NCBI RefSeq assembly: GCF_002899715.1
Contig: NZ_PPEK01000006.1
Span: 1-64,000, forward strand
Direction: 5' to 3'
DNA: 64,000 nucleotides
DNA from: Enteroscipio rubneri
GTDB lineage: Bacteria; Actinomycetota; Coriobacteriia; Coriobacteriales; Eggerthellaceae
Made by a program: the position numbers and the translations under genes. Positions 3,408-41,895 of the stretch are shown here, piece after piece. Numbering within the stretch: the stretch's first letter is position 1; every line of letters begins with the position of its first letter. Under the pieces are notes generated by a model that searched no databases, had not been told where the DNA came from, and saw nothing but the letters and a program-made list of their open reading frames with translations.

Positions 3408-3471
3408 AATGACCACCTCCAAGCTTATTTGTTGTTCATTGCACTTTGTATAATAGCGTTGTAAAATACTC

Positions 3472-3477
3472 TATAAT
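3472..3477 (+). promoter_or_regulatory. Candidate -10 box TATAAT for zinc-ribbon/integrase genes
   Basis: A perfect TATAAT lies about 50 bases before the preferred GTG start at 3524. A second TATAAT at 3449-3454 lies within the same AT-rich intergenic stretch. Neither has a clear -35 hexamer at 17 bases, so a repressed or activator-dependent promoter is possible. Confidence 0.4.
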
Positions 3478-3523
3478 AGAAAAATTAGAGGTTATTACTT
3501 TAGAGATTACGGAGTATCTACAA

Positions 3524-4537
3524 GTGAATGAGTACAAGATAAAAAGAGTCTTTAGTATTCACGAGGTTTTCAAACCGCTGCCGTGGTATGTCCGAGACGT
3601 AATTCCCATATTGAGAAGCGACGGCGAGCCAATCGCTTATTGCGAAGTGGACGGTCATAGTAGGCTTATGCGAGAGCTTCCGTGTGAAATTTTTAATCAC
3701 GAATTGAAACGGCTTAACGTTTTGAATGGCGAAGAATTCGCCTCTTTCATGTCCGAGTATGGACTTGTTGGATGTTTTGAGAAAAACAGAGAATTATTTT
3801 CTTCGTCTCTCCTGAAACTCGACATTTCCGATCGCAGCCAAGTTCTGAGGTTTGAGGCGGATATGGATTTCCTAGCGTTACTTCCGAAAAACCCTTCTGA
3901 TTACTTTATCTCTCGGCAAGAAATTGAGACACGCTATTCGGAACTTCAGGAAGGAATTGCATGTGTGGCAAAAGATCACAAGGTGCTTAGTGTCGTGTCT
4001 GCCGCAGAGGCGGCAACAACTGTTTGGTCTTTGCTGAGCAGTGCGAAAACAGTAAAGGCAATTATGCAGAGTGACGATCCTGAGACAATAGCCAAGCTTG
4101 CGGACATCAGCGTCGATGGTCTTTACGATGAGATACAGGAGGATGATGAATACCTGAACTGGCTCATGAGAGGGATTTCTCCCCAGATAGGAATAGTGAT
4201 AGACATGCCGGACGGCACTTGCGGGAAGCCGTCATTCGATGACTTGATACTTGAATATAAGCGCGGGTGCTTTGAGCAGGCCGTGGCTTTGCAGATATGG
4301 GAGTTCTCTCTGCATGGCGAAGGGTATTCCGTATGCTCCGAGTGTGGCGAGGTTTTCGTCAGGAAGCGGTCAACCAACAGGAACGGCTCGCCTCGAAACA
4401 CGAGCTTGTTTTGCTGTGATAAATGCAAAAATCGATATACGCAGAGAAAGTACAGAAAAAGCCCCGCATACCAGTTAAAGCAAGAAAAAAAGAAAGCCAG
4501 CAAACCAAGTTCATCCAATGTTGATAAAACGCACTAG
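3524..4537 (+). CDS. Zinc-ribbon protein upstream of integrase, function unknown
   Basis: A protein of 337 residues with no recognised N-terminal domain. The C-terminus holds a four-cysteine zinc ribbon (CSECGEVFVRKR, then CCDKCKNRYTQRKYRKSP) followed by a lysine-rich tail, resembling the C-terminal zinc finger of CGNR-type nucleic-acid-binding proteins. I chose GTG at 3524 because GGAG lies about nine bases before it; the frame stays open to a TTG at 3446. The gene is clearly more AT-rich than its neighbours, which suggests a separate origin. A protein with a similar C-terminal finger sits in the same place before the integrase of the second element (37861), so a role in integration, excision or regulation is possible. 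Confidence 0.75.
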   Translation: MNEYKIKRVFSIHEVFKPLPWYVRDVIPILRSDGEPIAYCEVDGHSRLMRELPCEIFNHELKRLNVLNGEEFASFMSEYGLVGCFEKNRELFSSSLLKLDISDRSQVLRFEADMDFLALLPKNPSDYFISRQEIETRYSELQEGIACVAKDHKVLSVVSAAEAATTVWSLLSSAKTVKAIMQSDDPETIAKLADISVDGLYDEIQEDDEYLNWLMRGISPQIGIVIDMPDGTCGKPSFDDLILEYKRGCFEQAVALQIWEFSLHGEGYSVCSECGEVFVRKRSTNRNGSPRNTSLFCCDKCKNRYTQRKYRKSPAYQLKQEKKKASKPSSSNVDKTH

Positions 4538-4610
4538 CTAATCCCGCCCGCTGACCCGGGCGCGTTGGGTATAGCCAAGCAAGCGCGGATCACAGGAAGG
4601 AGGTAACACC

Positions 4611-5888
4611 ATGGCAAAAGGAGACGGAAGCATAACGGAGGTGCGGCGCGGCGTGTGGCGCGTGTGCGTGTCTTTCGGCACCGATCCCGTGACGGGGAAG
4701 CGGATCAAGGTGCAGCGCAATGTACACGGCACCAAGGCGGAGGCTCGGAAGGAGCGCGACCGGATACGCAGAGAGCATGAAAACGGCTTGTCGGTCGATG
4801 CGGACAAGATGACGTTCGGAGAGTTCGCCGACACGTGGCATTCCGCTCGCGTGGATGCGGGCGAAGTGGTGCGCACGCGCCTTGAACGCGAAGGAACGCT
4901 CATTAGCACGCTGTCAAGCTATATCGGCACTGTCCGCTTGCGCGATTTGACGCCGCAGACCGTCGAATCTCTGTATGCGTCCATCAAGCGCGACAAGACG
5001 GCAGAACGAGGCTCGTGCAGTGGGACTACGCTTCACATGTACCACGCCCTTTTGAAGCAGATACTGCGCAAGGCGGTAAACTACGATCTAATCTTGCGCA
5101 ACCCGTGCGACCGCGTGAAAGCCCCGAAGGCCGACGAGCCAGAACGCCGCTCGCTCACCGTGGACGAAGGGGCGCGGCTGCTCGAATGCATCGAAGAGGC
5201 GGAGCGCGCCGCATACGCGTGGATGGCGGAGAAAGAGGCGCGGCAGACCGAGTGGGGCAATCTGTTCGGGCGATCAAGCCTTTTGGGGCTGAACACGATC
5301 AGCTACGTTATGGCGGCGCGCATCGGCCTTGCCACAGGCATGCGGCGCGGCGAGGTGTTCGGGTTGTGCTGGGGAAGCGTTGACCTGAACCAGCCGTGCA
5401 TCAAGGTTCGCCAATCCCTCACGTCCTACGGCGAGGTGAAAGCTCCGAAGAGCAAGGCGGGCGTGCGCACCGTCGCCATCGATGCTACCACGGCGGCGCA
5501 TCTTCGGCAATGGAAGGAGCGCCAGGCGGTGGAGTTGTTGAAGCTCGGCATCAAGCAGGACGGATGCACGCCGGTATGCTGCTCGGCGGTGGGCGGTTAC
5601 TGCGAGCTTCACAGGTTCACGCGGTGGTGGGTGGGGTTCCGCAAGCAACACGGCTTCGATGATCTCAAATTCCACGAGCTGCGCCACACCCAGGCTACCC
5701 AGCTGCTGGCGAACGGCGTAGACGTGAAGACGGTGCAGAATCGCATGGGGCACTCTACGGCCTCTCTCACTCTGAACCAGTACGCTCACGCGATACCGGA
5801 GAACGACGAGAAGGCCGCGCAGCTCGTGGGAAACCTGTTCGCCAAGAGGGCTGACGAAACGCCGATAATCAAGGTGAAAACTGCCTAG
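4611..5888 (+). CDS. int: Tyrosine-recombinase integrase
   Basis: A 425-aa site-specific recombinase that integrates and excises the element at the tRNA-Arg gene. It has an N-terminal arm-binding region (residues 1-60), a SAM-like core-binding domain and a C-terminal catalytic domain. Visible catalytic residues are Arg in GMRRGEVFGLCW, His-x-x-Arg in FHELRHTQATQL, His in NRMGHSTASL and the nucleophile Tyr in LNQYAHAI. GAAGGAGG precedes the ATG with good spacing. The gene ends about 100 bases from the tRNA 3' end, as expected for an integrase that uses that gene as attB. Confidence 0.95.
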   Translation: MAKGDGSITEVRRGVWRVCVSFGTDPVTGKRIKVQRNVHGTKAEARKERDRIRREHENGLSVDADKMTFGEFADTWHSARVDAGEVVRTRLEREGTLISTLSSYIGTVRLRDLTPQTVESLYASIKRDKTAERGSCSGTTLHMYHALLKQILRKAVNYDLILRNPCDRVKAPKADEPERRSLTVDEGARLLECIEEAERAAYAWMAEKEARQTEWGNLFGRSSLLGLNTISYVMAARIGLATGMRRGEVFGLCWGSVDLNQPCIKVRQSLTSYGEVKAPKSKAGVRTVAIDATTAAHLRQWKERQAVELLKLGIKQDGCTPVCCSAVGGYCELHRFTRWWVGFRKQHGFDDLKFHELRHTQATQLLANGVDVKTVQNRMGHSTASLTLNQYAHAIPENDEKAAQLVGNLFAKRADETPIIKVKTA

Positions 5889-30301: not shown

Positions 30302-32041
30302 CTACGCCTTCGCCAGCTCCTTGCCGAGCAGGTAGGGGAAGGTGATGCACGCCATGCCCAGATTCTGTCCCGGAACGCGGAAGTTGTAGAACGTCCCGAA
30401 GGTGTCTCCCATCATCGATCCTACGTTGTACAGCCCTTCGATGGGCGTATTGGCTTCGTCGCATACCTCGCAGTTTGGCGATGTCCGCAAGCCTCCGAGC
30501 ACGCACAGGAACTGCGCGGGGCCCAACTGGTTGTACTGCCCGTAGAACGGACCCTGGTCGATGGGGATGAGGAAGTCCTTGCACTTGTGGTACTGCGTAT
30601 CGTTGCCGGCCGCCACATCGGCGTTGTACTGTTCGATGGTGGCTTTTGCGACGTCTACGTCGATGCCGCCCTTCTCGGCAAGCGCTTTCAAGACGTCGTC
30701 GAGGGTGTCGCCCTTTACGTAGGTGCCCTCATCGACGCCAGCTTCGAACTCGGCTGCTTTCTCGTCGGCGGAGACGGGCGCGATTCCGAGGCTGTCCATG
30801 TTGTTGCCCAGGCCCTCCCATGTATCGAACCGATGGGCGAAGGCGGAATCCCAGACGGTGAATACCTTCTTGTCGGTCTGGCCGCTGATGGCGTATCCTG
30901 CGTACACCGACGTAGTATCTTCGTTGATGAAGCGCTGACCTTCTACGTTAAGCAAGATTCCGGGATGGTTCTGGTCGGAGCATGGCGCGGGGAATCCGTA
31001 CCAACCGATCATCGGGGCGCTCGGAGTGGTGTTCTGCCAAGCGGCCCCCACCCATAGGCCCATCTTCTGGCCATCGCCGGGCATAAGGCCTCCGAACTGG
31101 AACTCTGCGTCGTAGTCGCCAGCACTTTCGGCGACGTAGTCGGCGAAGGCGTTGCAGTATTTGGCCATCATGTCGGGGTCTCCCGAAAAGTCGCCCGTGG
31201 CCATGACGATGGCCTTCGAGCCCTCGAACTTCACGTATTCGCCGTCTTCGTTCGTGGCGATCACAGAGGAAACGCGTCCGGTATTGTCGTTCTCGCGGAC
31301 GAGGTACTCGGCTTTCGTGTTGTAGCGGATGCTGCCGCCGTTGTCGAGGATGTACTGCTCCAGGGTCGCGGTGAGCAGAGGCTCGCCGTCGTTAGCCGAG
31401 TTCTGTATCTCGGGGCCGTAGAAGTTGTGCGCGCCGCTTGGGATGCTGAACGTGCCATTGGGGTCGGCGTAGGGCAGTTCGAGCGTGGTGGTGTAGCCGG
31501 CAGCTTCCATAATGTCGGTGACCCAGTCCATAGCTTCGCCTGACTCGTTAATCCATTTCCACCACTTGCGCGAGTCCATACGGTAGCCCTGGCGTGCGAT
31601 CTCGTTGTTGAAGTGCGCGGCCACCGTATCGGGTGTGTAGGCAAGTCCAAGGCGTGCCTGCGTTTTCGTGCCCACCGCATGGTTCGAGCCGCCGCGCGAA
31701 ACGGCCTTCGTGCCGGCGGAGAACAACGTGCAGCTGCCGCCGTGTCCCAGTACGGAAGCGGCTGCCATGAGACCCGATACACCCGATCCTATGACGATCA
31801 CGTCGTCGGCGATGGTCTCGACCAGCTGGCTATCGTCTACGGGCTCGGGCGGCACTTCGAAGCTCCAGGTGAGGTTGCCGTAGGCCTCGGCGGTCATCGG
31901 TCCTACCACCGCGGCTGCTTCCGAAGACGAAGTGGGTTGCTGCGGGCTGCACCCGGCGATCATAGCGCCCGATGCCGTCGCGGCCCCTGCGACGAGCGCT
32001 CCCTTGAGAAAGCTTCTGCGGTCGAATGCGTGTGTGCTCAT
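30302..32041 (-). CDS. FAD-dependent fumarate-reductase-like flavoprotein, Tat lipoprotein
   Basis: A 579-aa extracytoplasmic reductase. The Tat signal DRRSFLKGALVAGAA ends in a lipobox-like MIAGC, so it is probably membrane-tethered. FAD binding is shown by DDVIVIGSGVSGLMAAASV and AVSRGGSNHAVG; the capping and C-terminal domains follow fumarate reductase (SAPMIGWYG, YNVGSMMGDTFGTF). No CxxCH heme motif is present, so electrons must come from a separate carrier. AGGAGGG precedes the ATG at 32041. Substrates of such Eggerthella paralogues include diverse organic acceptors; this one cannot be specified. The LuxR gene downstream is its likely regulator. Confidence 0.9.
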   Translation of the reverse strand: MSTHAFDRRSFLKGALVAGAATASGAMIAGCSPQQPTSSSEAAAVVGPMTAEAYGNLTWSFEVPPEPVDDSQLVETIADDVIVIGSGVSGLMAAASVLGHGGSCTLFSAGTKAVSRGGSNHAVGTKTQARLGLAYTPDTVAAHFNNEIARQGYRMDSRKWWKWINESGEAMDWVTDIMEAAGYTTTLELPYADPNGTFSIPSGAHNFYGPEIQNSANDGEPLLTATLEQYILDNGGSIRYNTKAEYLVRENDNTGRVSSVIATNEDGEYVKFEGSKAIVMATGDFSGDPDMMAKYCNAFADYVAESAGDYDAEFQFGGLMPGDGQKMGLWVGAAWQNTTPSAPMIGWYGFPAPCSDQNHPGILLNVEGQRFINEDTTSVYAGYAISGQTDKKVFTVWDSAFAHRFDTWEGLGNNMDSLGIAPVSADEKAAEFEAGVDEGTYVKGDTLDDVLKALAEKGGIDVDVAKATIEQYNADVAAGNDTQYHKCKDFLIPIDQGPFYGQYNQLGPAQFLCVLGGLRTSPNCEVCDEANTPIEGLYNVGSMMGDTFGTFYNFRVPGQNLGMACITFPYLLGKELAKA

Positions 32042-32267
32042 GGTCCCTCCTACAAGACGTCGACGGGCAGTCGGCCCGCCGCGCGGCCGCTCCCATCGGG
32101 CCGCTTCGGCGTCAGTGTAGGATTGACGCAGGCCGGAATCCTCACACCAGGTGGGTGAGATTCGCACGTTTCACTTCGTCGTCTGACCGGATCATCGTCG
32201 AAAGCATCGAGCGGGATTTGGAGCACGCCTGCTATCCTGTCGTCCGTCTCGGCGTGGCGAAATAAAA

Positions 32268-32294
32268 GCGCCTCTCGAGCGAGTCGAGAGGCGC
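32268..32294 (-). terminator. Intrinsic terminator, original terminator of tRNA-Phe
   Basis: An 11-bp stem (GCGCCTCTCGA with its complement) and loop GCGAG, followed on the minus strand by TTTTATTT. It lies just beyond the left tRNA-Phe repeat and points in the tRNA direction, so it probably ended the tRNA-Phe transcript before the 8.2 kb element inserted between them. Confidence 0.8.
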
Positions 32295-32304
32295 GGTGCA
32301 CGCG

Positions 32305-32337
32305 ATGGTGGTCGGAGGGGGACTTGAACCCTCGACA
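32305..32337. repeat. attL: 33-bp tRNA-Phe 3'-end repeat
   Basis: Identical over 33 bases to 40449-40481 (starts ATGGTGGTCGG, ends CCCTCGACA). It carries the T-arm, acceptor and CCA part of tRNA-Phe and nothing of the anticodon arm, the usual remnant left by tRNA-targeted integration. Confidence 0.95.
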
Positions 32338-32433
32338 TGTAACGCCTGGTCAAACCTATGAAACCTTGATGGATCATTTACGAACAACCGAGGGGAACAG
32401 AGGGGCTTGTAAGACTCCGTAACTCCCTGTAGT

Positions 32434-32454
32434 CATGTACAGAATTCGTACACG
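32434..32454 (+). repeat. Candidate integrase arm site, left copy
   Basis: A 21-base motif CATGTACA-NNN-TTCGTACACG that recurs at 40346-40366 in the same orientation, with differences only in the three middle bases. It lies about 97 bases inside the left attachment core; the right copy lies about 83 bases inside the right core. Both hold the inverted half-sites TGTAC/GTACA. Confidence 0.65.
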
Positions 32455-32472
32455 TTACAGAGAGGGCCATCA

Positions 32473-32661
32473 ATGGAGAAGCATGCAACCGTCTTAAATC
32501 TTGAACTGGAGCCGTTGTATAACGATTTGCTCAACTTAGCTAGCCTATTGCTCGCTGTGGGGGATGCGCTTGAAAACGAAGGGAATCTATATGCTGGTGC
32601 CGTAGTTGTAGCACGTCGTGAGCTTGCAAAAGTCGCCGAGACGGTGAAGTGGGCTGTATAG
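32473..32661 (+). CDS. Small hypothetical protein
   Basis: A 62-aa mostly helical protein starting MEKHATVLNLELEPLYNDLL. AGAGAGGG lies upstream with reasonable spacing. It is the first frame inside attL and is not recognised. The Leu- and Ala-rich centre could form an amphipathic or short membrane helix. Evidence for expression is only the ribosome site and position. Confidence 0.45.
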   Translation: MEKHATVLNLELEPLYNDLLNLASLLLAVGDALENEGNLYAGAVVVARRELAKVAETVKWAV

Positions 32662-32755
32662 CAGTAGCGACTCCCCCGCAGAAGCCGCTACTGCTTGAAT
32701 CGCAAGGGATGGAGGGCGGGCAACACCGTACTCCCGGGATGAATAATCTAAGTAA

Positions 32756-33364
32756 TCAGCGCATGACAAGGGGCATCGGCAAAAGGAAAGCGACGAGAAA
32801 TCCAATGAGGATAACCGTTGCGTACATACCAAAGCCCCACCGCTTCTCGCTCTTGGAGCCGTGCAGCCTTACGGCTCCAATATTTATCCCCGTGGCGATG
32901 GCGGCAAGGAGCGCGCCGCCCACTACCGTGAGGTAAAAGCCGAACCCCACATAGGAATTGTTCGCAGAAACACCGGCGATATGCATGAGGCCGAAAACCA
33001 ACGAAAGCGCAGCAAAGGCCGCCTCTATAGCTGCTGCATTTTTGCTGGGGGTTCTCAAGTAGTAGAAGAAGAACCCAGCGGCGGTTGAGAGGACGGCGAG
33101 CAATTGCACCGCCGCGATGATGTATGCGTCGGTGGAAATTGCGTAGTGCAGGAACATGGATAGAGCGAAATAACCAGCCACAAGAAAGGCGGCTGCGTTC
33201 ACGACTAGGCCGCCCATGGGGGTCTTTCGTGGTGCAATAGGGGGTGCGGCTGTCGGTTTATTGACCGGTGCGGTTTCGGCGGGGGCGGCACCCGTCTTCG
33301 TGCCGCATCCATCGCAAAACCTCGCATCGTCGTTCAGCTTCTTACCGCAGTTTTGACAATACAT
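32756..33364 (-). CDS. Zinc-ribbon membrane protein
   Basis: A 202-aa protein with an N-terminal double-CxxC zinc ribbon (MYCQNCGKKLNDDARFCDGC), a Pro/Ala-rich linker and four to five membrane segments (residues 52-200). Such zinc-ribbon membrane proteins are widespread and mostly uncharacterised. It lies 13 bases after the 72-aa gene and so ends an apparent three-gene operon that starts with the nuclease-like protein; a membrane effector role is conceivable but unproven. Confidence 0.8.
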   Translation of the reverse strand: MYCQNCGKKLNDDARFCDGCGTKTGAAPAETAPVNKPTAAPPIAPRKTPMGGLVVNAAAFLVAGYFALSMFLHYAISTDAYIIAAVQLLAVLSTAAGFFFYYLRTPSKNAAAIEAAFAALSLVFGLMHIAGVSANNSYVGFGFYLTVVGGALLAAIATGINIGAVRLHGSKSEKRWGFGMYATVILIGFLVAFLLPMPLVMR

Positions 33365-33377
33365 CAGACTATCCTCC

Positions 33378-33596
33378 CTACAGTTCGCGGGCGGTGTTGG
33401 TGCCCGTGTCCAGCTCGAAGCGCTTGCGGATGTCGCCGGTCAGCTCCACGGTTGCCACGGTGCCATCGATGGTCACCGACGCTATGTCGCTGTCGTAGCC
33501 CGACCATCCGGAGAGGGTCGCGTAGACCTCTCGCATGCCGTCCTCGAAGACGATGGCGCGGGTGCTGGGGTCGGTCTTGTCGTTATACGCGTACAT
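33378..33596 (-). CDS. Small hypothetical protein coupled to nuclease gene
   Basis: A 72-aa beta-rich protein (AIVFEDGMREVYATLSGWSG, VTIDGTVATVELTG) of unknown function. Its ATG shares a base with the stop of the nuclease-like gene (TGATG), and GGGAG lies just upstream, so the two are translationally coupled. Small size and coupling would suit a partner or antidote of the nuclease. Confidence 0.65.
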   Translation of the reverse strand: MYAYNDKTDPSTRAIVFEDGMREVYATLSGWSGYDSDIASVTIDGTVATVELTGDIRKRFELDTGTNTAREL

Positions 33597-34240
33597 CACA
33601 GGCTCCCTTCGCTCGGCTGGGCGTTCTTCGCGTTCTCGGTCGCCGCTTCTCTCACGGCATCGGCGAGGTCTTCAAGCTCGATGACCCTGCGCGCGCCAAG
33701 CGCGGCGAGCTGCGGGAGGCTGATGCTGCCTTGCGTGCCGCGTTCGTTCAGCTTCGAGGTGGGCAGCACGTAGAACTCCCATTGGGAGAGGTCGAGCGGG
33801 TTGGGGTTCATCATGTCCTGGATGGTGCAGTTCTCAAAGGCGAATACGTACACGTCGGCCTGACGGCGCACCGCTTCTTCATAGGTGTTGTCTTCCGGGT
33901 TCCATGCGCGCGACGGGCGCGTGCTGAACGAGGGGATGGAGAGCGCTTTCTGCCCCCATACTTGAATGTACGCGGAGGTCTTCACCTCCACCTTGACCCG
34001 CTCGGCCTCCCACAGTATGTCGTAGGCTCCCCATTCCTCGCTGGTGCCGCCCGCGCAGTCGAGCGCAAGGCTCACGAGGTACTCCGCGAACTTGCCGCGC
34101 TCGGCGTTGCTGTTCAGCTCGGAGTGCGCCCAGCGCCAATAGTCTTGCACACACGCAATCTTCCTGCCCTCGCACAGGATGGGTTCGCCGCCGGTCTTCG
34201 GCGTGCATCGTATGACGGGGTACTTGATTTTCTCTGCCAT
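33596..34240 (-). CDS. PD-(D/E)XK-like nuclease, candidate restriction or defence protein
   Basis: A 214-aa protein with the layout of a PD-(D/E)XK fold: Glu53 in GKFAEYLVSLAL, Asp74 in WGAYDILWE and Glu85-x-Lys87 in VKVEVKTSAYIQVW. A beta-rich end (QWEFYVLPTSKLNE) and a helical, Glu/Ala-rich tail follow. The ATG at 34240 has GGAGG upstream. It heads a leftward operon and is divergent from an Xre regulator of controller-protein type. No methylase is adjacent, so a plain type II restriction pair is unlikely; an abortive or conditional nuclease is possible. Confidence 0.7.
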   Translation of the reverse strand: MAEKIKYPVIRCTPKTGGEPILCEGRKIACVQDYWRWAHSELNSNAERGKFAEYLVSLALDCAGGTSEEWGAYDILWEAERVKVEVKTSAYIQVWGQKALSIPSFSTRPSRAWNPEDNTYEEAVRRQADVYVFAFENCTIQDMMNPNPLDLSQWEFYVLPTSKLNERGTQGSISLPQLAALGARRVIELEDLADAVREAATENAKNAQPSEGSL

Positions 34241-34265
34241 GCATCCTCCAATCGATCTCCTTCTC

Positions 34266-34299
34266 ACACTATATCGCAGATTGTCACCGATATAGGTGT
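34266..34299. promoter_or_regulatory. Candidate Xre operator between divergent genes
   Basis: ACACTATATCG (34266-34276) is opposed by CGATATAGGTGT (34288-34299), one base short of perfect symmetry. CATATAG and CTATAG follow within 20 bases. The stretch is the only spacer between the nuclease-like gene and the divergent Xre gene, so it is the natural place for autoregulated divergent promoters. Confidence 0.5.
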
Positions 34300-34353
34300 A
34301 ACTCATATAGGGCTATAGGAAACGATGTGAGCCTATCGGAGAAAGGCTCACGC

Positions 34354-34584
34354 ATGACTGAACTGGATATAAAGATGAGGACGGGTCTTCGCATCAAAGA
34401 GCTGCGCGCGAAGACCGGCCTGAGCCAGGAGAGCTTCGCATGGGGCATCGGCATGGCGAGAACGTACTTCGCGGAGGTGGAGACCGGCAAACGCAACATG
34501 TCGCTCGTGAACCTTGAACGAATAGCGGATGGCCTCGGCGTGACCTTGACAGAGTTCTTTGATTCGGAATTGTTCGACAAATAG
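34354..34584 (+). CDS. Xre-family regulator (controller-protein-like)
   Basis: A 76-aa HTH_3 protein (RIKELRAKTGLSQESFAWGI, YFAEVETGKRNMSLVNLERI) ending in VTLTEFFDSELF, close in form to controller proteins of restriction systems. The ATG at 34354 has GAGAAAGG upstream. A hairpin (GTGAGCCT 34327-34334 with AGGCTCAC 34344-34351) overlaps this ribosome site and may be an operator or a translational lock. The frame stays open to 34327. Confidence 0.85.
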   Translation: MTELDIKMRTGLRIKELRAKTGLSQESFAWGIGMARTYFAEVETGKRNMSLVNLERIADGLGVTLTEFFDSELFDK

Positions 34585-34619
34585 TATCGCCTAAATAAAT
34601 AATCAGGGAGGTAAGGCTT

Positions 34620-35363
34620 GTGGTTGACTACAGCATTGAGTGGGTGGTTAAACAGCTTGATGAATTTATCGAGTTGACGAAAGGGAGATACAAGGGCAGC
34701 CCCGAAGACATGGGCGTGTGGTGGTCGGTGTCTGGCGATTCCGATTCAATCAAAGCACAACTACCCGTTGTTGAACGGATTTTCGACCGCTTTGTACCCG
34801 GCTGGAATAACCCTCCAATTCTGTACAATTTGGACGAGCCAACCGAACAACTTTGGGGACGACATAGAGACCTTGCTCTTCGCGTTAAAACGTTTGTTGA
34901 GCGTGAACAGGAGATTAGGTGCTACCTTGGTGATGGAGCGCCTAACATTTCCGCAAGCAACCTTCACCCATGGGTGTGGAGCGGAGCTGCTTCGTTGTGG
35001 CAGTCGGGTCATTTCCGCTCTGCGGTTGAAGACGCTGCAAAAAAGGTAAATGCTGAGACCCAAAACAAACTGCATCGACGCGACGTTAGTGAAACCCGTC
35101 TTTTCAACGAGGCATTCAGCGAAGACCCTGCTGTACCAGGGAAGCCTCGCCTGCGACGCATGAGTCCCGATGGAAGCAACACATATCGTTCGATGCAACG
35201 AGGAGCGCGGGCGCTCGCAGAAGGAATTTATGCTGGAATAAGAAATCCGTTCAACCATGAAAGCCCACATGATATCGATGAGCAGGTTGCCTTGGAGTAT
35301 CTTGCAGCGTTGAGCATTCTCGCGAGATGGGTTGATGAGTCTGAGCTGGAGGAAGCGGCCTAA
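34620..35363 (+). CDS. TIGR02391 (Hypoth_ymh)-like protein
   Basis: A 247-aa protein. Residues 110-240 resemble the TIGR02391/Ymh domain: LHPWVWSGAASLWQSGHFRS, AVEDAAKKV, GARALAEGIYAGIRNPFNHE and LEYLAALSILARWVDE. The RNPxxH motif is also seen in abortive-infection and HEPN-like proteins, so an RNA-cleaving or growth-arrest role is possible by analogy. The start is GTG at 34620 with GGGAGG before it. It follows the Xre gene by 35 bases and is AT-richer than the chromosome. Confidence 0.75.
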   Translation: MVDYSIEWVVKQLDEFIELTKGRYKGSPEDMGVWWSVSGDSDSIKAQLPVVERIFDRFVPGWNNPPILYNLDEPTEQLWGRHRDLALRVKTFVEREQEIRCYLGDGAPNISASNLHPWVWSGAASLWQSGHFRSAVEDAAKKVNAETQNKLHRRDVSETRLFNEAFSEDPAVPGKPRLRRMSPDGSNTYRSMQRGARALAEGIYAGIRNPFNHESPHDIDEQVALEYLAALSILARWVDESELEEAA

Positions 35364-35468
35364 ACGGCTTAAGTCGTTCACTCGGCCTCAAACGCTGCAA
35401 AAGAATCGTGATGCCGAGGTGGAAACACGACGCAGTGCAAAGTATCCTTTATTGTTGGAGGTGCTTGC

Positions 35469-36080
35469 ATGGGAAAGAAATCCACGGCGGCAATGGTCGA
35501 GCTGCGTACGGCCAAGGTGGCTGAACTGCTCATAGACGGGTGGAGCCGTGCCCGGATATGTGAATATGCGCGAAACCAACATTGGAACGTGAGCGAGGGG
35601 CAAATAGACCGCTACATAGCTTCGGCGCGGGAGCGCATCAAGGCCAATTGCTCGAAGGACACCGAGGAGAAGTGCGCACTCGCCGAGGCGCGCCTTGAGG
35701 CGTTATACGGCAAAGCTGTCGAGGCGGGAGACCTCCGGTTGGCGCTCAATGTAGTGAAAGAACAGAGGGCGCTGCAAGGCCTCGACGAAGCTTCGGGTGC
35801 GGCTGCGCCGGGTAAGGACGCCCTCCCGTTCTACGCTGTGCTGGCCTCATACGGTGAGGCTTTACGCGTCAACCTGACCCCCGAACAGCTCAGGGCGGTC
35901 GTAAGGGATGCGAACGAGTATGCCGTCATAGGCCAATCTTTGGAACCCGATTGGGAGCCCCCGGCTGATTGCATGGCCCAGTGCGTCGAGGATGTAAGGA
36001 GACTGAGGAGGACGCGCACCCGAGAAGAGTTGCAAGAAGCCGGTATTATTGAAGAAGGCGGTCTTGAGCTGCCCTCGTGA
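35469..36080 (+). CDS. Small-terminase-like helix-turn-helix protein
   Basis: A 203-aa protein. Residues 10-60 (AKVAELLIDGWSRARICEYA, NVSEGQIDRYIASARERI) resemble the DNA-recognition domain of phage small terminase subunits, followed by a helical segment typical of oligomerisation (ALYGKAVEAGDLRLALNVVK). No large terminase is present. In phage satellites a stand-alone small terminase redirects helper packaging, which would fit an 8-kb element. A different HTH role cannot be excluded. TTGGAGGTGCTTGC precedes the ATG. Confidence 0.6.
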   Translation: MGKKSTAAMVELRTAKVAELLIDGWSRARICEYARNQHWNVSEGQIDRYIASARERIKANCSKDTEEKCALAEARLEALYGKAVEAGDLRLALNVVKEQRALQGLDEASGAAAPGKDALPFYAVLASYGEALRVNLTPEQLRAVVRDANEYAVIGQSLEPDWEPPADCMAQCVEDVRRLRRTRTREELQEAGIIEEGGLELPS

Positions 36081-36117
36081 CGTACAGGTATGTTGCTTAC
36101 CCAGGTAATAGGGAATG

Positions 36118-36151
36118 ACAAGGCAAGACCCATGGGCCTTGCCTTGTTTTT
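36118..36151 (+). terminator. Intrinsic terminator
   Basis: ACAAGGCAAG (36118-36127) pairs with CTTGCCTTGT (36138-36147), followed by TTTTT. It lies 38 bases after the small-terminase-like gene. Confidence 0.9.
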
Positions 36152-36325
36152 GAGTGAGCCTCGGAAGAAAGCCCCTACCGACCGTCGGTTGCGGCGCGCA
36201 AGCGCGCAAATCAGGTAGTCGTGTCTCGACCCCGGAACGGAAAGTGATAGGTTGCGGCTAGGCCATGTACGTTGCGCCGTTCCAGGACGCGACAATCGGG
36301 TGAGGTTTCCTTCCTTTGGTTATGT
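36152..36325 (-). ncRNA. Non-coding stretch after IS110-family gene, candidate guide RNA region
   Basis: About 174 bases without a gene, downstream of the DEDD recombinase. It contains short complementary segments (TTGCGGCGCGCAAGCGCGCAA, CCGACCGTCGG). IS110-family elements carry a structured bridge RNA in a flanking non-coding region, downstream in the IS1111 group. The upstream side of this gene has no room for one, so this stretch is the only candidate. No transcript or target loop is shown. Confidence 0.3.
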
Positions 36326-37339
36326 CTAGTCGAGACGGTGGGCCAATGCCCACGCCTGCTCGGCGATGCAGCGAGCCATGATGGCTGCGCGATGAGTTTT
36401 CCCGTGCTGGCGTGAGGATCTATCAAGCGAAGCTAGGCATTCGCGTATTGCGCTGTTCTCAGGGTCGGCCAGCCCGTCGGTTTGAAACGAGCCTCCTGTG
36501 CGCATGACGGTCGTAGCGGCACTGTAGAAGCATGCTCCCGACGGCGTGCGCTTGCGATTGCCGAGCTGCACGATCTTACCTCCAGAGTCGTGCGGAATAG
36601 GAACGAGACCGAGGAAGCTCACATAATCGCGGGCGGTGTCGAACCGCTTGAAGTCCATGGCTTCCGCTGCCGTTGTGAACGCGGTTACAGAGCCGATACC
36701 GCTCAACTGTGTCAGTGCGCTCATGTCGGAGTTGCGCTCCACCTCACGACCCATGAACTGGTCAAGGTGAGCTAGCTCGCATTCTGCGCTTTCAAGCTGA
36801 GCAGTCAGGGAGTCGAACGAGATACGGTCGTCGGAACTCAAGGAGCCGAGTATGCGCGCTCGCGCATCGGGTGCCATCGTCCTCGGTAGACCATGGCGGT
36901 GCGAAAAGGCAGAAAGACGCTTCTTTACGACCGTACGCTGCTGCGCAAGCGCATACCGCTGGCGGGCCGCTTCGCGTTGCGCCTCCTGTTTCTCGGTGGG
37001 AATATAGACCGGTTGCAACCGCTTACACAGAAGGAGCGTGGCAAGCGCCTCGGCATCCAGCGCGTCGGTCTTTGCCCGTCCCAATCCAAGCGTGCGTCCC
37101 TGCGTAACCATACAGGGTATGCCATGGCTGATGAGTAAGCGGGCAAGCGCGAAGCCGCAGTACCCCGCTTCATAGACGGCTTCACGCTGTCCAGGAAGTG
37201 CTTCGAGCCACGCTAGCAAGCCCGCGAAATCACTGCCGTCGAACACACTAGCAAAGATTTCACCTGTATCGGCATCGATAGCGCGCGCAACGATGTTTCT
37301 CAAATGCACATCGAGTCCAACTTTGATTCGCGCGTTCAT
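36326..37339 (-). CDS. IS110-family (DEDD) transposase/recombinase
   Basis: A 337-aa protein. The RuvC-like N-terminal domain shows the DEDD residues Asp10 (VGLDVH), Glu57 (VYEAGY), Asp92 and Asp95 (KTDALDAEAL). The C-terminal Transposase_20 domain has LSGIGSVTAFTTAAEA and LGLVPIPHDSGGK. The length is normal for the family. The ATG overlaps the stop of the HTH_17 gene by four bases (ATGA), and that gene overlaps an Xre gene, so it is the third gene of a compact operon and not an obvious simple insertion. A Piv-like invertase or element-specific recombinase is possible; a recent IS insertion is the alternative. Confidence 0.85.
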   Translation of the reverse strand: MNARIKVGLDVHLRNIVARAIDADTGEIFASVFDGSDFAGLLAWLEALPGQREAVYEAGYCGFALARLLISHGIPCMVTQGRTLGLGRAKTDALDAEALATLLLCKRLQPVYIPTEKQEAQREAARQRYALAQQRTVVKKRLSAFSHRHGLPRTMAPDARARILGSLSSDDRISFDSLTAQLESAECELAHLDQFMGREVERNSDMSALTQLSGIGSVTAFTTAAEAMDFKRFDTARDYVSFLGLVPIPHDSGGKIVQLGNRKRTPSGACFYSAATTVMRTGGSFQTDGLADPENSAIRECLASLDRSSRQHGKTHRAAIMARCIAEQAWALAHRLD

Positions 37340-37539
37340 GCCGTCACCTCGTCGCTCAGGAATTCAGCCAAAGCCGGGCGGGGTATACGCCAGAGCCGAC
37401 CGATCTTGCGTCCAGCCAAAGCCCCGATGCGGCACAGCTCGCAGATGGTCTTGGTCGATACCTGCAAAATATCAGCAGCTTGTCTCACGGTAAGGACGGG
37501 CGGGTACTCCTGCAAACCAAAAGCGTTATTTTTCATCAT
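37336..37539 (-). CDS. HTH_17 excisionase-type protein
   Basis: A 67-aa protein consisting of one HTH_17 domain (LTVRQAADILQVSTKTICEL, GRKIGRLWRIPRPALAEFL). GAGGAGG lies just before two adjacent ATGs (37539 and 37536). It overlaps the Xre gene by 14 bases and the recombinase gene by four. It may be the directionality factor for the tyrosine integrase, for the DEDD recombinase, or for both. It is the counterpart of the gene at 2933 in the first element. Confidence 0.8.
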   Translation of the reverse strand: MMKNNAFGLQEYPPVLTVRQAADILQVSTKTICELCRIGALAGRKIGRLWRIPRPALAEFLSDEVTA

Positions 37540-37735
37540 CAACCTCCTCGAACAGAGCGTCTTGGTCGCCCTCCCAATCTAGAGCGCGGGCGAGCCGTTC
37601 CTTCCAACCGGGCCAAATTTGCGTATTCCCTGTCACGATGCGGCTGAGGATTGTGGGGCTGATATCTGCACGTTGCGCGAGCTTTGTTTGGCTCAATCCC
37701 TTAGCTTGTCGCTCGATTGTAAGTCTGAGAGTCAT
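37526..37735 (-). CDS. Xre-family repressor
   Basis: A 69-aa HTH_3 protein (KGLSQTKLAQRADISPTILS, RIVTGNTQIWPGWKERLARA) with an acidic C-terminus. AAAGGA lies eight bases before the ATG at 37735. It is first in the leftward operon and divergent from the zinc-ribbon gene, whose promoter and a palindrome lie between. It should be the element's maintenance repressor. Confidence 0.82.
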   Translation of the reverse strand: MTLRLTIERQAKGLSQTKLAQRADISPTILSRIVTGNTQIWPGWKERLARALDWEGDQDALFEEVDDEK

Positions 37736-37759
37736 TCTGAAATCCTTTCCATTGAAGTG

Positions 37760-37788
37760 TTGACCTAACCAACGCACACGGTTATTAT
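37760..37788 (+). promoter_or_regulatory. Sigma-70-type promoter of zinc-ribbon/integrase operon
   Basis: TTGACC (37760-37765) and TATTAT (37783-37788) are separated by 17 bases, about 72 bases before the zinc-ribbon start. Confidence 0.7.
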
Positions 37789-37797
37789 GTAAGAGGA

Positions 37798-37827
37798 ATT
37801 TACCGATAAATAAATTTAACGGTAAAT
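37798..37827. promoter_or_regulatory. Palindromic operator candidate
   Basis: ATTTACCG (37798-37805) and CGGTAAAT (37820-37827) form a perfect inverted repeat around an AT-rich centre, directly downstream of the promoter. Repressor binding here would block transcription of the zinc-ribbon and integrase genes. Confidence 0.65.
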
Positions 37828-37860
37828 ATAGAATTGGGGCTGATTTACGGGAAGGTTGAT

Positions 37861-39054
37861 ATGGGACGGCTAGAATATGTTAACGAGAACGAGCTTGTTT
37901 TCAGCGAGCCTCGCATGCCCTTGTCTCCCATTTGCGGCAGCAGGATTCTGGAGGATATCAACAACCTTCGCACGTGGCGCGATTTCATGACGCTCTGCAA
38001 CAAGTACGGCGACTGGCTTTGCTACGAGCCTTTCCTTAACAAGAAGATGGGCGCGTTCTCTATGTCTATAGGACATGACATAGTCAGCGCAGCGGGCATG
38101 CTTAAGGGCAACCTCGTCAGTGCGGCAGACGCATTCGAGGGCGTGGAATACCTCGACCGATTTTCTTCCGATATACACGGGGACGAGGCCAACGCCGTCT
38201 ATAACTCCTTCGTCACATGCGTTCATGGAGGTGTGTATCCTTATCGGGTCATCGAAACACGTCAGATGCTCAAGTACCTCCGGCTGTTTCCGTTCGTACT
38301 AACCCTCGCAGCCATCGCCAACGATAAACACAACGGGGGCGGGATTGTCGAGGTTGGCGAGTGCGTCATCCTCAAGCTGGGGGAAGAGCCGGGCATGGCG
38401 TGCCCGGTTTACATCACCTTGCCCGAAGAGCTGGCCGAAGACGATATGCGCACCCTGTTCTTCACGGACGATGCCAATTTCTCCCAGCTTCCCGAAGCCG
38501 AAGCCCTTGCCGAACGGCAGCGGCTTTCCGAGGCGGCGGGTTGTTCGCGCAATGCCCCCGATTTGTCAAAGCGCGTCCGCGTGTTCGTGTTTGACCTCGC
38601 TCCGACGCTGACATTAAGCGACGAAGACCGGAGCTATGCCGTGCGGCAGGCATGCGGAACGCTTGCGTGCTTTGTTCTGGCTCGCATAGGGTTCGGTGAA
38701 TCATCATTGCGCTTCATCAACGGGAAAGCCGTCACCGATGAGGGGGCGACCATCTTCCAGGTTATAGCGCAAGCCGCAAAAGAGATTTTGCTGGATGACG
38801 ACGTCATCCTTTGTGAGGTGTGCTCACGACCCGTACTCACCAATAAAGACCGGGGAACACCGTCGAAGATCTGCCGTGTCGGCTCGTGCAAGACAACCGC
38901 CAGTGCACGTCGGAAAACCCGTGTGGAGCAGTTGGCGGCGAGTGGTGTTCCGGTCGAAGATGCAGTGAGTGAACTAGGGGAGCAGTACCGCCAAAGTATC
39001 GAGAGGTGGTTCGAAAATTATGTGTCCACAAGCGCATTGGGTGCTTTGGAATAG
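37861..39054 (+). CDS. Zinc-ribbon protein upstream of integrase, function unknown
   Basis: A 397-aa protein with no recognised N-terminal domain. Near residues 320-345 it has a cysteine finger (CEVCSRPVLTNKDRGTP, then CRVGSCKTTASARRK) similar in form to the C-terminal finger of the 3524-4537 protein. GGGAAGG lies before the ATG at 37861. Its place between a divergent Xre/HTH_17 operon and the integrase is the same as in the first element. The conserved position points to a shared role in control or chemistry of integration; nothing in the sequence shows an enzymatic activity. Confidence 0.75.
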   Translation: MGRLEYVNENELVFSEPRMPLSPICGSRILEDINNLRTWRDFMTLCNKYGDWLCYEPFLNKKMGAFSMSIGHDIVSAAGMLKGNLVSAADAFEGVEYLDRFSSDIHGDEANAVYNSFVTCVHGGVYPYRVIETRQMLKYLRLFPFVLTLAAIANDKHNGGGIVEVGECVILKLGEEPGMACPVYITLPEELAEDDMRTLFFTDDANFSQLPEAEALAERQRLSEAAGCSRNAPDLSKRVRVFVFDLAPTLTLSDEDRSYAVRQACGTLACFVLARIGFGESSLRFINGKAVTDEGATIFQVIAQAAKEILLDDDVILCEVCSRPVLTNKDRGTPSKICRVGSCKTTASARRKTRVEQLAASGVPVEDAVSELGEQYRQSIERWFENYVSTSALGALE

Positions 39055-39087
39055 GCATGCTGGCAAACAACAGAAAGGAGACCTACC

Positions 39088-40329
39088 ATGCCAAAGGTAC
39101 GCGGGAACGGGAAGCTGAGGAAGCTTGGGAAGACGGACGGTCTGACGCGGTATCAGATGCGGGTGGCTATCGGTCGCGACCCGGTGACCAACAAGTACAT
39201 CACTAAGACCAAGGTGGTGCGCTGCAAAACCAAACAAGAGGCAGAAGAGAAGCTGCGGGAGTTTGTTCGCCACATCGAGAGCGGGCTTGCCACGGGAAAC
39301 GAGGTGCCTACGTTCGCCGAGTTTGCGAAAGAGTGGCACGAGCGTCGGCGCTCCTCGAAGGAACTGAGCATCGGGCAGTTGCGGAAGGAGGGGCTTCATG
39401 TCCGAACCCTAAATAATTATTTAGGGAATATCAATCTTCAGGAGCTAAACCCGCGTCTTATTAGCAACATGCTTGTGAAGCTCCGAAATAACGGGTCTCT
39501 GTTGCAGAAGTCTCTCTCCGGCACGACGTGCAACGGTATCTTCATCACGCTTAAGCAAATACTGCACGAGGCGTTTGTGTACGAACTTATCCCCAACAAC
39601 CCGTGCGACAAGCTCAAGGCTCCCAAACGTGACACCAAGGAGAAGCGCGCGCTCACACCGGAGGAGCTGTCTCGGGCAAATGCGGCGCTCGAACAGATGC
39701 CGCTTGATGCGCACGTCGTTGCCGTTGCTCTCGCTCTCAATACGGGCATGCGACGCGGCGAAGTGCTTGGCCTCACTTGGCAGGATGTTGACTACGACGC
39801 TGGGGTTATTCATGTGCGGCATAGTCTCGCGAGCGACGGCATGACCCTCAAGGAGCCAAAGACGCAGAGCGGAAAGCGTACCGTGCCTGTTGACGCACGA
39901 TTCATGGATAAGCTTCGCCGCTGGGAGACCCTACAGGAGAAGCGCCTTGCCGAGCTTCGTATAAAGCCCACGATTGATACTCCGGTGGTTACGAGTGGAG
40001 TAGGTGGCTTCATGCACCCCGAGAATCTGAATAGGTGGTGGCGCAAACACCGTGTCGAGCTTAGGCTTGAAGAATTCACGCTTCATCAGTTTCGCCATAC
40101 CTACGCGAGCGTGCTTGTTGGGGAGGGTGCCGACCCGAAGTCCGTTCAGTCGCTCATCGGCCATTCCGATGCCGCGTTCACGATGAAGCTGTACACGCAC
40201 CACAACATCGAGAACGAGAAGCGTGCGACGCTCAAGATCGCCAATGTTATCTACGGAGACGGTGAGTCAACGGAAGCCCGCCCCGACGAACGAGACGCTA
40301 TCTCAGCCGCAGAATTCGCGACCGCATAA
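39088..40329 (+). CDS. int: Tyrosine-recombinase integrase
   Basis: A 413-aa integrase of the tRNA-Phe element. It has an AP2-like N-terminal arm-binding domain (TRYQMRVAIGRDPVTNKYIT), a SAM-like domain and a catalytic domain with Arg in GMRRGEVLGLTW, His-x-x-Arg in LHQFRHTYAS, His in IGHSDAAF and the nucleophile Tyr in KLYTHH. AAAGGAG precedes the ATG. It lies 34 bases after the zinc-ribbon gene, so both share the promoter at 37760. It is clearly diverged from the integrase at 4611 and matches a different tRNA site. Confidence 0.95.
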   Translation: MPKVRGNGKLRKLGKTDGLTRYQMRVAIGRDPVTNKYITKTKVVRCKTKQEAEEKLREFVRHIESGLATGNEVPTFAEFAKEWHERRRSSKELSIGQLRKEGLHVRTLNNYLGNINLQELNPRLISNMLVKLRNNGSLLQKSLSGTTCNGIFITLKQILHEAFVYELIPNNPCDKLKAPKRDTKEKRALTPEELSRANAALEQMPLDAHVVAVALALNTGMRRGEVLGLTWQDVDYDAGVIHVRHSLASDGMTLKEPKTQSGKRTVPVDARFMDKLRRWETLQEKRLAELRIKPTIDTPVVTSGVGGFMHPENLNRWWRKHRVELRLEEFTLHQFRHTYASVLVGEGADPKSVQSLIGHSDAAFTMKLYTHHNIENEKRATLKIANVIYGDGESTEARPDERDAISAAEFATA

Positions 40330-40345
40330 AGCATTTTCGAGCAAC

Positions 40346-40366
40346 CATGTACACGTTTCGTACACG
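40346..40366 (+). repeat. Candidate integrase arm site, right copy
   Basis: Counterpart of 32434-32454: CATGTACA-NNN-TTCGTACACG, 18 of 21 bases identical and in the same orientation, about 83 bases from the right attachment core and just after the integrase stop. Confidence 0.65.
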
Positions 40367-40385
40367 ACAGGTTGCGTAAATGAAA

Positions 40386-40440
40386 AGGGAGTGTTTGCGC
40401 TATCCCAGAATCCCCATCCTGATCAGCACAAACACTCCCT
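40386..40440 (-). terminator. Element-borne terminator serving tRNA-Phe
   Basis: A 12-bp stem (40386-40397 with 40429-40440) closes a long loop, and TTTT follows on the minus strand. It lies nine bases beyond the tRNA-Phe 3' end on the element side, so it can replace the displaced chromosomal terminator at 32268; it could also stop the integrase transcript. Confidence 0.7.
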
Positions 40441-40448
40441 AGCATTCA

Positions 40449-40525
<77 letters not shown>

Positions 40526-40556
40526 ACGGGTATCGTCCATGAGGACGTGAATCGGT

Positions 40557-40585
40557 ATTGTACCGGTCGTGCGCGTGCGGGTCAA
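40557..40585 (-). promoter_or_regulatory. Promoter of tRNA-Phe
   Basis: On the minus strand TTGACC (40585-40580) and TACAAT (40562-40557) are separated by 17 bases, about 30 bases before the tRNA 5' end. Confidence 0.85.
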
Positions 40586-40709
40586 GCGCGAATTCCAGGA
40601 GGGGCGCCAGAGAACATGCCAGGTACCCGACTTGCCCGTGCGCCCGACGTTGCGATTGCCCGCCGCTGTGAGTTTGGTATGGACTCGACGGCGCAGGGCA
40701 GATTGCTGC

Positions 40710-40856
40710 CTAGTCCGTTTCCACGCGCCCGCGCAGTTTTTTGACACCGCGACCGAGCATGCCGCCGAGCTTCGGAAGGTTTTTTGGACCGAAGATGAGC
40801 AGCACAACCGCCAAGATCAACGCGAGCTCGGGTACTCCCATGCCGAATATTCTCAT
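40710..40856 (-). CDS. tatA: TatA, twin-arginine translocase pore subunit (48 aa)
   Basis: A short gene with GAGGAG before its ATG. The 48-aa product has an N-terminal membrane helix (VPELALILAVVLLIFGPKNL) with the hinge Phe-Gly-Pro and an amphipathic helix (PKLGGMLGRGVKKLRGRVE), the hallmarks of TatA/E. It lacks the long acidic tail of Escherichia TatA. It would help export the three Tat substrates in this window. No tatC or tatB is in the window. Confidence 0.9.
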   Translation of the reverse strand: MRIFGMGVPELALILAVVLLIFGPKNLPKLGGMLGRGVKKLRGRVETD

Positions 40857-41253
40857 GCTTTGTGCTCCTCTCCGTTTCAATCTTTACCAGTGTATTCCCG
40901 TGCGAACGCGAGGGACGGCCCTTCGGTGGCGATCGGTCTGGCTGTTGACAACCAAATGCTGTGCTTTCTTGCGATCTGCAAACGCCGGCATCGATTGCTG
41001 TCGGCCGAGCAGACCACTTTGCTGGCGATAAGTATAGCAGCATTAAAATTATAGTAACTATAATTTTGAACAGATTCGAACACATTCTATATACTGAAAC
41101 CGGTGAAAACGCGGCGATGGTCGTCGTGCAAGCGAAAAGCGACGATCGGTCGGTTGGGCGGATGGCTCGCAAAACCTCACAATGACGAGGGTGGGCCGCA
41201 GGTTCGCCCGGACTCGATATACGCTCTGGCACATGCGACGAGAGGACGATGGA
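40857..41253. other. Divergent promoter region between tatA and TetR gene
   Basis: About 397 bases without a gene. A perfect palindrome (AAAATTATAG, TAA, CTATAATTTT) lies at 41045-41067. TTGAAC (41066-41071) with TATACT (41090-41095), 18 bases apart, forms a + strand promoter for the TetR gene, so the palindrome covers its -35 end. On the minus strand CTATAATTTT within the palindrome and TATACT near 41031 could serve tatA. Confidence 0.55.
41045..41067. promoter_or_regulatory. Palindromic operator candidate for TetR regulator
   Basis: Ten-base perfect arms around TAA in an AT-rich island within GC-rich DNA, overlapping the promoter of the adjacent TetR gene. Confidence 0.6.
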
Positions 41254-41895
41254 GTGGAGAAACGAGCAGATGGGGCCGATCGACCGCGGGAAACGTTGCG
41301 TGAGCGTAAGCGGCGCGAAACGCGTGAGGCTATCGAACGCGCCGCGATCTCGCTGGTGGACGAGTTGGGATATGAAGGGGTGACGGTCGCCATGATCTGC
41401 GATCGAGCCGTTGTGTCGCAGGGCACGTTCTTCAACTACTTTCCCACCAAAGACGCAGCCATCGTCGGCATTCCCGCAGCTCCGCTTGACGTCGATGCTG
41501 TTCGTGCCGCATACGACAGCCAGGCTTCAAGCACGCCGTTCTCCGTCACGTTGGCGCTTTTTCTCGAGGTCGTGCGCGCGCTCGACCGGGCGAGCGACAT
41601 AGCTGCTATGCGATGGCGGCTCGTCTCGCAGACGCCTGCTCTCATGCGCCTGTTTTTGGATGGCACGTTCGGCTTCGTGGCGGACTTCCGGGATTTGCTG
41701 GCCGAATACCTTGCGGCGTGCCCCGATCGGCGCGCGTGTCCCCATGAGCTTACGGCGGCCGAGGAAGCCGATCTTATCGTCGCCGAGGCGCTTGCTGCAG
41801 CGAAATTTGCTTTGACGCGCGCAACCGGTCGGGAGGAAGGGAACCTGCCGGACAACGAAGAAGTTGGGCGCATTGTGAGAAAGATCGTTGGATAG
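41254..41895 (+). CDS. TetR-family regulator
   Basis: A protein of about 213 residues. The N-terminal helix-turn-helix (GYEGVTVAMICDRAVVSQGT, FFNYFPTKDAAIVG) follows a basic stretch; the C-terminal domain is helical. I prefer GTG at 41254, which has GAGGA seven bases upstream; ATG at 41233 lacks a ribosome site. The palindrome at 41045 suggests autoregulation, and tatA is a possible divergent target. Its ligand is unknown. Confidence 0.85.
   Translation: MEKRADGADRPRETLRERKRRETREAIERAAISLVDELGYEGVTVAMICDRAVVSQGTFFNYFPTKDAAIVGIPAAPLDVDAVRAAYDSQASSTPFSVTLALFLEVVRALDRASDIAAMRWRLVSQTPALMRLFLDGTFGFVADFRDLLAEYLAACPDRRACPHELTAAEEADLIVAEALAAAKFALTRATGREEGNLPDNEEVGRIVRKIVG

What the first reader, a model, noticed from the sequence alone, without database searches (positions are those of the whole stretch)
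36152..37735. IS110-family recombinase in a coupled operon with HTH_17 and Xre genes
The DEDD recombinase ATG overlaps the HTH_17 stop by four bases, and HTH_17 overlaps the Xre stop by 14. The HTH_17 protein is full length. This looks like a built-in gene of the element and not a random insertion. It takes the place held by the replication genes in the first element. If IS110-like, it may use a guide (bridge) RNA; the only free non-coding stretch is 36152-36325 downstream. A small element with both a tyrosine integrase and a possibly RNA-guided DEDD recombinase would be unusual.
Basis: partly seen in the sequence, partly recalled or inferred. Interest (0 to 1): 0.75.

Follow-up and report, generated by a model that had tools for sequence, protein, structure and literature searches.

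The report
Captured IS110 recombinase in integrating element
A small DNA element parked in a tRNA gene has turned a relative of RNA-guided jumping-gene enzymes into a permanent part of its own control operon, in the slot where sister elements keep their DNA-replication genes, so it may show what such enzymes can do once they stop jumping.

Summary
A 337-aa IS110-family DEDD recombinase (36326-37339, minus) is translationally coupled to HTH_17 and Xre genes inside an ~8.1-kb tyrosine-integrase element in tRNA-Phe. It is built in, not an inserted IS. The same operon is in G052 (other genus; DEDD 71% identical, dS 1.18, dN/dS 0.17) and in G470 (other family, tRNA-Thr; 37% identical; contig ends inside the gene). 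The three DEDD proteins form one clade (100/99). The gene is single-copy, has no IS ends around it, and congeners carry empty tRNA-Phe sites. In sister elements the same slot holds a rolling-circle Rep or a primase. Relatives are IS1111-type, with a conserved RNA 3' of the gene. This clade keeps the catalytic DEDD and Ser-Gly, but both full-length members lack the G-x-I-T-K-x-G-N-x-x-L-R motif, and a covariance model of the relatives' RNA finds nothing here. Instead, a 148-bp noncoding stretch just 3' of the gene is 95% identical between two elements whose DEDD four-fold sites are half changed. Most likely this is a domesticated recombinase acting on its own element, with that stretch as guide RNA or DNA site. 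RNA guidance is plausible but unproven.

The parts
32309..40481 (.). integrated element, about 8.1 kb, in tRNA-Phe
   Evidence: direct repeat of the tRNA-Phe 3' end at both ends; same element in tRNA-Phe of G052; single att core and no element genes in the 3.1-3.4 kb examined around tRNA-Phe in G053, G054, G055, G062
32309..32337 (.). distal att repeat
40453..40481 (.). att repeat inside tRNA-Phe
36326..37339 (-). IS110-family DEDD recombinase, 337 aa; D10, E57, D92, D95, S252, G253 kept; canonical Tnp_20 motif lost
37336..37539 (-). HTH_17 (excisionase/AlpA-like) gene; its stop overlaps the DEDD start (ATGA)
37526..37777 (-). Xre/Cro-type regulator, first gene of the operon
36178..36325 (-). 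conserved noncoding stretch 3' of the DEDD gene; candidate guide RNA or recombination/origin site
   Evidence: 141/148 bases identical with G052 against 66/97 next door and 50% at DEDD four-fold sites
36230..36287 (-). predicted 11-bp stem (36230-36240 / 36277-36287); the two G-U pairs in the window are G-C in G052
   Evidence: fold energy not better than shuffles
37834..39054 (+). 406-aa protein with C-terminal zinc-binding-like Cys cluster, divergent from the operon (p363, p371, p372 hold this position in sister elements)
39088..40329 (+). tyrosine integrase
   Evidence: PF00589 9.8e-25
35469..36080 (+). 203-aa protein convergent with the DEDD gene, 83% in G052; role unknown (small-terminase-like by eye only)

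Best explanation
The gene is a domesticated IS110-family recombinase that became a core gene of a small lineage of tRNA-integrating elements. It is made from the operon Xre - HTH_17 - DEDD, in the slot where sister elements keep a replication initiator. When the operon is switched on, the DEDD enzyme most likely performs RuvC/serine-type strand cleavage and exchange on the element's own DNA, for example on the circle excised by the tyrosine integrase. Its specificity comes from the 148-bp noncoding stretch just 3' of the gene, read either as a guide RNA or as a DNA site. Shown: operon structure, conservation in three elements, single origin, purifying selection, kept catalytic residues, lost canonical motif, conserved noncoding stretch. 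Inferred: catalytic activity, the substrate, and the role of the stretch. I put a guide RNA at about 0.35 and a DNA site at about 0.3.
For: Same order int - p4xx - Xre - HTH_17 - DEDD in G052 and G470, with ATGA, GTGA and ATGAGTAA overlaps. One DEDD clade, 100/99, on a long stem. dS 1.18 with dN/dS 0.17. Catalytic tetrad and Ser-Gly kept. No HTH_17/Xre pair upstream of any ordinary IS110 gene among the 76 loci checked. No second copy; members found in only these three genomes among family, order, class and phylum samples. Slot otherwise used by HUH Rep (REP_ORF2-G2P 9e-16) or primase + AAA_25. Noncoding 36178-36325 95% identical, p = 5e-31 against the DEDD four-fold rate and 2e-17 against the p203 rate. 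In IS1111 relatives the RNA-coding region is likewise 3' of the gene (PMC11187229).
Against: No substrate site is visible: no repeat shared between the noncoding stretch and the rest of the element above chance. The relatives' RNA model finds nothing here. The canonical Tnp motif is lost, so recombination activity may be impaired. The two elements are mosaic in divergence (integrase four-fold identity 89%), so recent recombination could explain part of the conserved stretch (p = 0.05 against that rate). Only three members; the third is truncated at the contig end before the motif.
Confidence: 0.6

Rival explanations
1. The DEDD protein replaces the replication initiator: it nicks or processes the excised circle at the conserved stretch, which is an origin, as Rep and ori do in sister elements and in phage satellites.
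For: Slot and coupling match those of HUH Rep or primase genes. The conserved stretch lies directly 3' of the gene, the position of ori after rep in SaPI-type satellites (own knowledge). No other replication gene was recognised in the element.
Against: No IS110-family enzyme is known to me as a replication initiator; no iteron-like repeats were seen in the stretch; elements can also live without replication genes.
Confidence: 0.18
2. An IS1111-type insertion sequence landed after the HTH_17 gene long ago and is now a decaying passenger.
For: Relatives are IS1111-type IS in the same order. The canonical motif and a recognisable guide RNA are lost. An ordinary IS110 did land in an HTH_17-like gene in G112 (L110).
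Against: dN/dS 0.17, overlapping starts in all three members, HTH_17 full length, no IS ends, same arrangement across two families with one origin. In L110 the IS truncates the HTH gene, unlike here.
Confidence: 0.06
3. The DEDD protein is a guide-RNA-dependent binder or cutter used for control or competition (against a rival element, helper phage or target gene) and not for recombination.
For: Strand-exchange domain motif changed while RuvC residues stay; conserved noncoding stretch beside the gene; precedent for domesticated RNA-guided transposon proteins as phage regulators (TldR, abstract of PMC13418256).
Against: The Ser-Gly and third Asp that IS621 needs for composite-site recombination are kept (S252-G253, D92), which a pure binder would not need. 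No PADLOC hit.
Confidence: 0.1

Closest known systems
IS1111/IS110 insertion sequences (IS621, ISEc11; bridge RNA/seekRNA)
   Same: Full-length homology (NF033542), DEDD tetrad and Ser-Gly, conserved noncoding stretch 3' of the gene as in IS1111
   Different: No own ends or subterminal repeats, single-copy, fixed in an Xre-HTH_17 operon, canonical Tnp motif and recognisable guide RNA lost, host element moves by tyrosine integrase
Piv/MooV DNA invertases (Moraxella)
   Same: Recombinase of the same superfamily that is not itself a mobile IS
   Different: No invertible segment or paired recombination sites found; part of a mobile element's operon
Filamentous phages with IS110-type or PivNM/Irg transposases (Neisseria, Acinetobacter Af1)
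   Same: Small integrating element that carries an IS110-type enzyme as its own gene (PMC11209303)
   Different: There the enzyme is discussed as the element's own transposase and no other integrase is named; here a tyrosine integrase is present and no Zot or coat genes were recognised
PICI/SaPI-type satellites and small integrative elements
   Same: Order int - regulators - excisionase-like HTH - slot gene - cargo, in a tRNA gene (own knowledge of SaPIs)
   Different: Slot gene is a DEDD recombinase and not rep/primase; packaging and transfer functions not established

Membership tests
IS110/IS1111 recombinase protein family | RuvC-like DEDD tetrad | tested here: met
   D10, E57, D92, D95 conserved with the relatives
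IS110/IS1111 recombinase protein family | Tnp domain with catalytic Ser-Gly | tested here: met
   PF02371 1.3e-12; S252-G253 align with the relatives' SG
IS110/IS1111 recombinase protein family | G-x-I-T-K-x-G-N-x-x-L-R motif after the Ser-Gly | tested here: not met
   present, allowing conservative variants, in all 52 relatives examined; absent in window and G052; G470 truncated before it
IS110/IS1111 mobile insertion sequence | IS ends (subterminal inverted repeats for IS1111) enclosing tnp and noncoding region | tested here: not met
   found in multi-copy relatives; none seen around this gene; no 5' noncoding region at all, as the start overlaps HTH_17
IS110/IS1111 mobile insertion sequence | moves by itself, scattered copies | tested here: not met
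   single copy; found only inside this element type
IS1111 seekRNA / IS110 bridge RNA system | guide RNA in the long noncoding end | tested here: inconclusive
   conserved 148-bp stretch in the IS1111 position but no match to the relatives' RNA model, which finds 20 of 26 held-out relatives; no Rfam match
Piv/MooV invertase | invertible DNA segment flanked by inverted recombination sites | tested here: not met
   no convincing inverted repeats in 31500-41500; none shared with the noncoding stretch above chance
tyrosine-integrase element in a tRNA gene | integrase next to tRNA, att direct repeats, empty sites | tested here: met
phage satellite (PICI-like) | packaging or helper-interference genes | tested here: inconclusive
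   p203 has only an unknown-function PHROG match
filamentous phage with IS110-type enzyme | Zot and coat genes | tested here: not met
   none among the Pfam matches of the ten element ORFs scanned

The most novel reading that the evidence does not exclude
A domesticated RNA-guided recombinase: the element keeps one fixed guide RNA beside the gene, under operon control, and uses it to direct DEDD/Ser recombination for a step of its own life cycle (in place of, or linked to, replication) and not for transposition of an IS.
Probability: 0.3. Interest if true: 0.85.

Novelty: new variant of a known kind. Interest (0 to 1): 0.6.

Why it matters
IS110-family enzymes are recombinases guided by a bispecific RNA (PMC11208160), studied almost only as self-moving elements. 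A lineage that was taken over by another element, lost its own ends, changed the motif next to the catalytic serine, and sits in the slot of a replication gene would show what else this chemistry can do. It would also offer a naturally changed Tnp domain for finding which parts bind RNA. The hypothesis can be tested on one 8-kb element.

Tried and rejected
Random IS insertion: rejected (three members, overlaps, selection, no ends). Rfam match for the noncoding stretch: none. Fold stability: not better than shuffles (z -0.98 and -1.53). Homology to relatives' 3' RNA by covariance model R1: none in the element, filters on or off. Short matches between the stretch and the element or att sites: 11 found, 11.8 expected. 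DNA hit of the stretch in G088: short match at an unrelated place, taken as chance. More distant members in viral contigs, plasmids, phages, genome contigs: only ordinary IS110s or nothing. Hits in G478, G359, G464: ordinary or broken IS110s without the operon. dN/dS of Xre could not be computed in the right frame. A promoter inside the region: none on the minus strand.

Full report
OBSERVATION. The DEDD gene is at 36326-37339 minus (337 aa). It scores 9e-16 to DEDD_Tnp_IS110 and 1.3e-12 to Transposase_20, and passes the curated cut-off of NF033542 over nearly its whole length (172.5 bits against 140). Its ATG overlaps the HTH_17 stop by four bases (ATGA). HTH_17 overlaps the Xre stop by 14 bases if it starts at ATG 37539. 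The element is bounded by a direct repeat of the tRNA-Phe end, 32309-32337 and 40453-40481, with a tyrosine integrase at 39088-40329. The DEDD gene has no second copy in the genome.

BUILT IN, NOT INSERTED. Of 138 genomes of the family, G052 (another genus) has a homologue with 71% identity; every other match is an ordinary IS110, mostly at 31-38% identity. In G052 the whole element is in tRNA-Phe with the same order: integrase (97%), p406 (86%), Xre (75%), HTH_17 (89%), DEDD (71%), p203 (83%). A wider search gave a third member, G470, in another family of the order. There a tRNA-Thr is followed by integrase (31%), p372, Xre (41%), HTH_17 (36%) and DEDD (36-37%), again with overlapping genes. 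Its contig ends inside the DEDD gene. The three DEDD proteins form one clade, support 100/99, on a long stem. Between window and G052 the DEDD gene has dS 1.18 and dN/dS 0.17. None of the ordinary IS110 loci among the 76 checked has an HTH_17/Xre pair upstream; in one, L110, an IS has truncated an HTH_17-like gene, which shows what a real insertion looks like. Four genomes from the two host genera (G053, G054, G055, G062) have a single att core at tRNA-Phe and no element genes in the flanking DNA held. So the mobile unit is the whole element.

THE SLOT. In G087/G089 a sister element (integrase 37%, HTH_17 51%) has, after HTH_17 and overlapping it, a rolling-circle initiator (REP_ORF2-G2P, 9e-16). 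The window's first element (integrase 4611-5888) has a primase (Toprim, CHC2) and an AAA_25 ATPase in this role, and G117 has a primase.

THE PROTEIN. D10, E57, D92, D95 and the Ser-Gly (S252-G253) are kept. In IS621 these residues form the composite active site, and mutating D11, E60, D102, D105 or S241 abolishes recombination (PMC11208158). But the motif G-x-I-T-K-x-G-N-x-x-L-R, present with conservative variants in all 52 relatives examined, is missing in both full-length members. It is replaced by a sequence conserved between them (KRTxSGxCFYSAATTVMRxGG). What this motif does was not tested here. A single-sequence structure prediction was unusable.

THE RELATIVES ARE IS1111-TYPE. Aligning the copies in G296, G305, G065 and G344 gave IS of about 1.5-1.65 kb with a 3' noncoding region of 282-434 nt and inverted repeats near the ends. 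That is the arrangement in which IS1111 elements encode their seekRNA (PMC11187229; PMC11208160). A covariance model (R1) from ten such regions found the RNA downstream of the transposase in 20 of 26 held-out relatives at E below 1, but nothing downstream of the DEDD gene in the window or G052. So if this DEDD uses an RNA, it is not recognisably the relatives' RNA.

THE CONSERVED STRETCH. Of 36178-36325, 141 of 148 bases are identical in G052 (three gap columns besides), against 66 of 97 in 36081-36177 and 50% at DEDD four-fold sites. It lies between two convergent genes, so it is not an ordinary promoter region of either. Divergence along the element is mosaic (integrase four-fold identity 89%), so a recombined block cannot be wholly excluded; against that rate p is 0.05. 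A predicted 11-bp stem (36230-36240 / 36277-36287) has both of its differences between the genomes as G-U to G-C on the minus strand, which weakly favours a minus-strand RNA. The overall fold is no better than shuffles. Rfam has no match, and matches shared with the rest of the element are at chance level.

MECHANISM. I conclude a domesticated IS110-family recombinase, made from an operon with two regulators, acting on its own element, with the conserved stretch as guide RNA (about 0.35) or DNA site (about 0.3). Rivals are a stand-in for Rep with the stretch as origin (0.18), an RNA-guided binder or cutter (0.1), and a decaying IS (0.06). Activity, substrate and RNA are inferred, not shown.

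NOVELTY. IS110-type enzymes as built-in genes of small elements are known in filamentous phages (Acinetobacter Af1; Neisseria PivNM/Irg; PMC11209303), and Piv is a non-mobile recombinase of the superfamily. The combination seen here (Xre and HTH_17 operon, separate tyrosine integrase, replication slot, changed Tnp motif) was not found in the papers searched. I call it a new variant of a known kind.

Noticed in passing
window 846-5888: First element next to tRNA-Arg: tyrosine integrase, p363, primase-like (Toprim/CHC2) and AAA_25 genes; same general plan as the element studied.
   Followed up: partly
window 32756-34306 and L079, L080: Cargo (zinc-ribbon p202, p236) and p203 relatives recur in G086 and at a second place in G052 beside a 509-510-aa recombinase-like gene; p236 is 94% identical there, so the cargo module moves between elements.
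   Followed up: partly
window 34620-35363: Hypoth_Ymh protein (4e-30) with weak PADLOC matches (PD-Lambda-3_B, Aga_HEPN); probable defence cargo.
   Followed up: no
window 33596-34306: p236 has a VEVKTSAY stretch suggestive by eye of a PD-(D/E)XK nuclease; no Pfam match.
   Followed up: no
window 37351-37500: The HTH_17 coding DNA is 92-96% identical to G052, far above the genes on both sides; constraint or a recombined block.
   Followed up: partly
L110 (G112:C32): An IS1111-type IS is inserted in an HTH_17-like gene, truncating it.
   Followed up: no
L043 (MT838914.1, 4759 b), 3370-4356: Small unannotated phage record from human faeces encodes an IS110-type recombinase (25% identity) with the canonical motif.
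   Followed up: no
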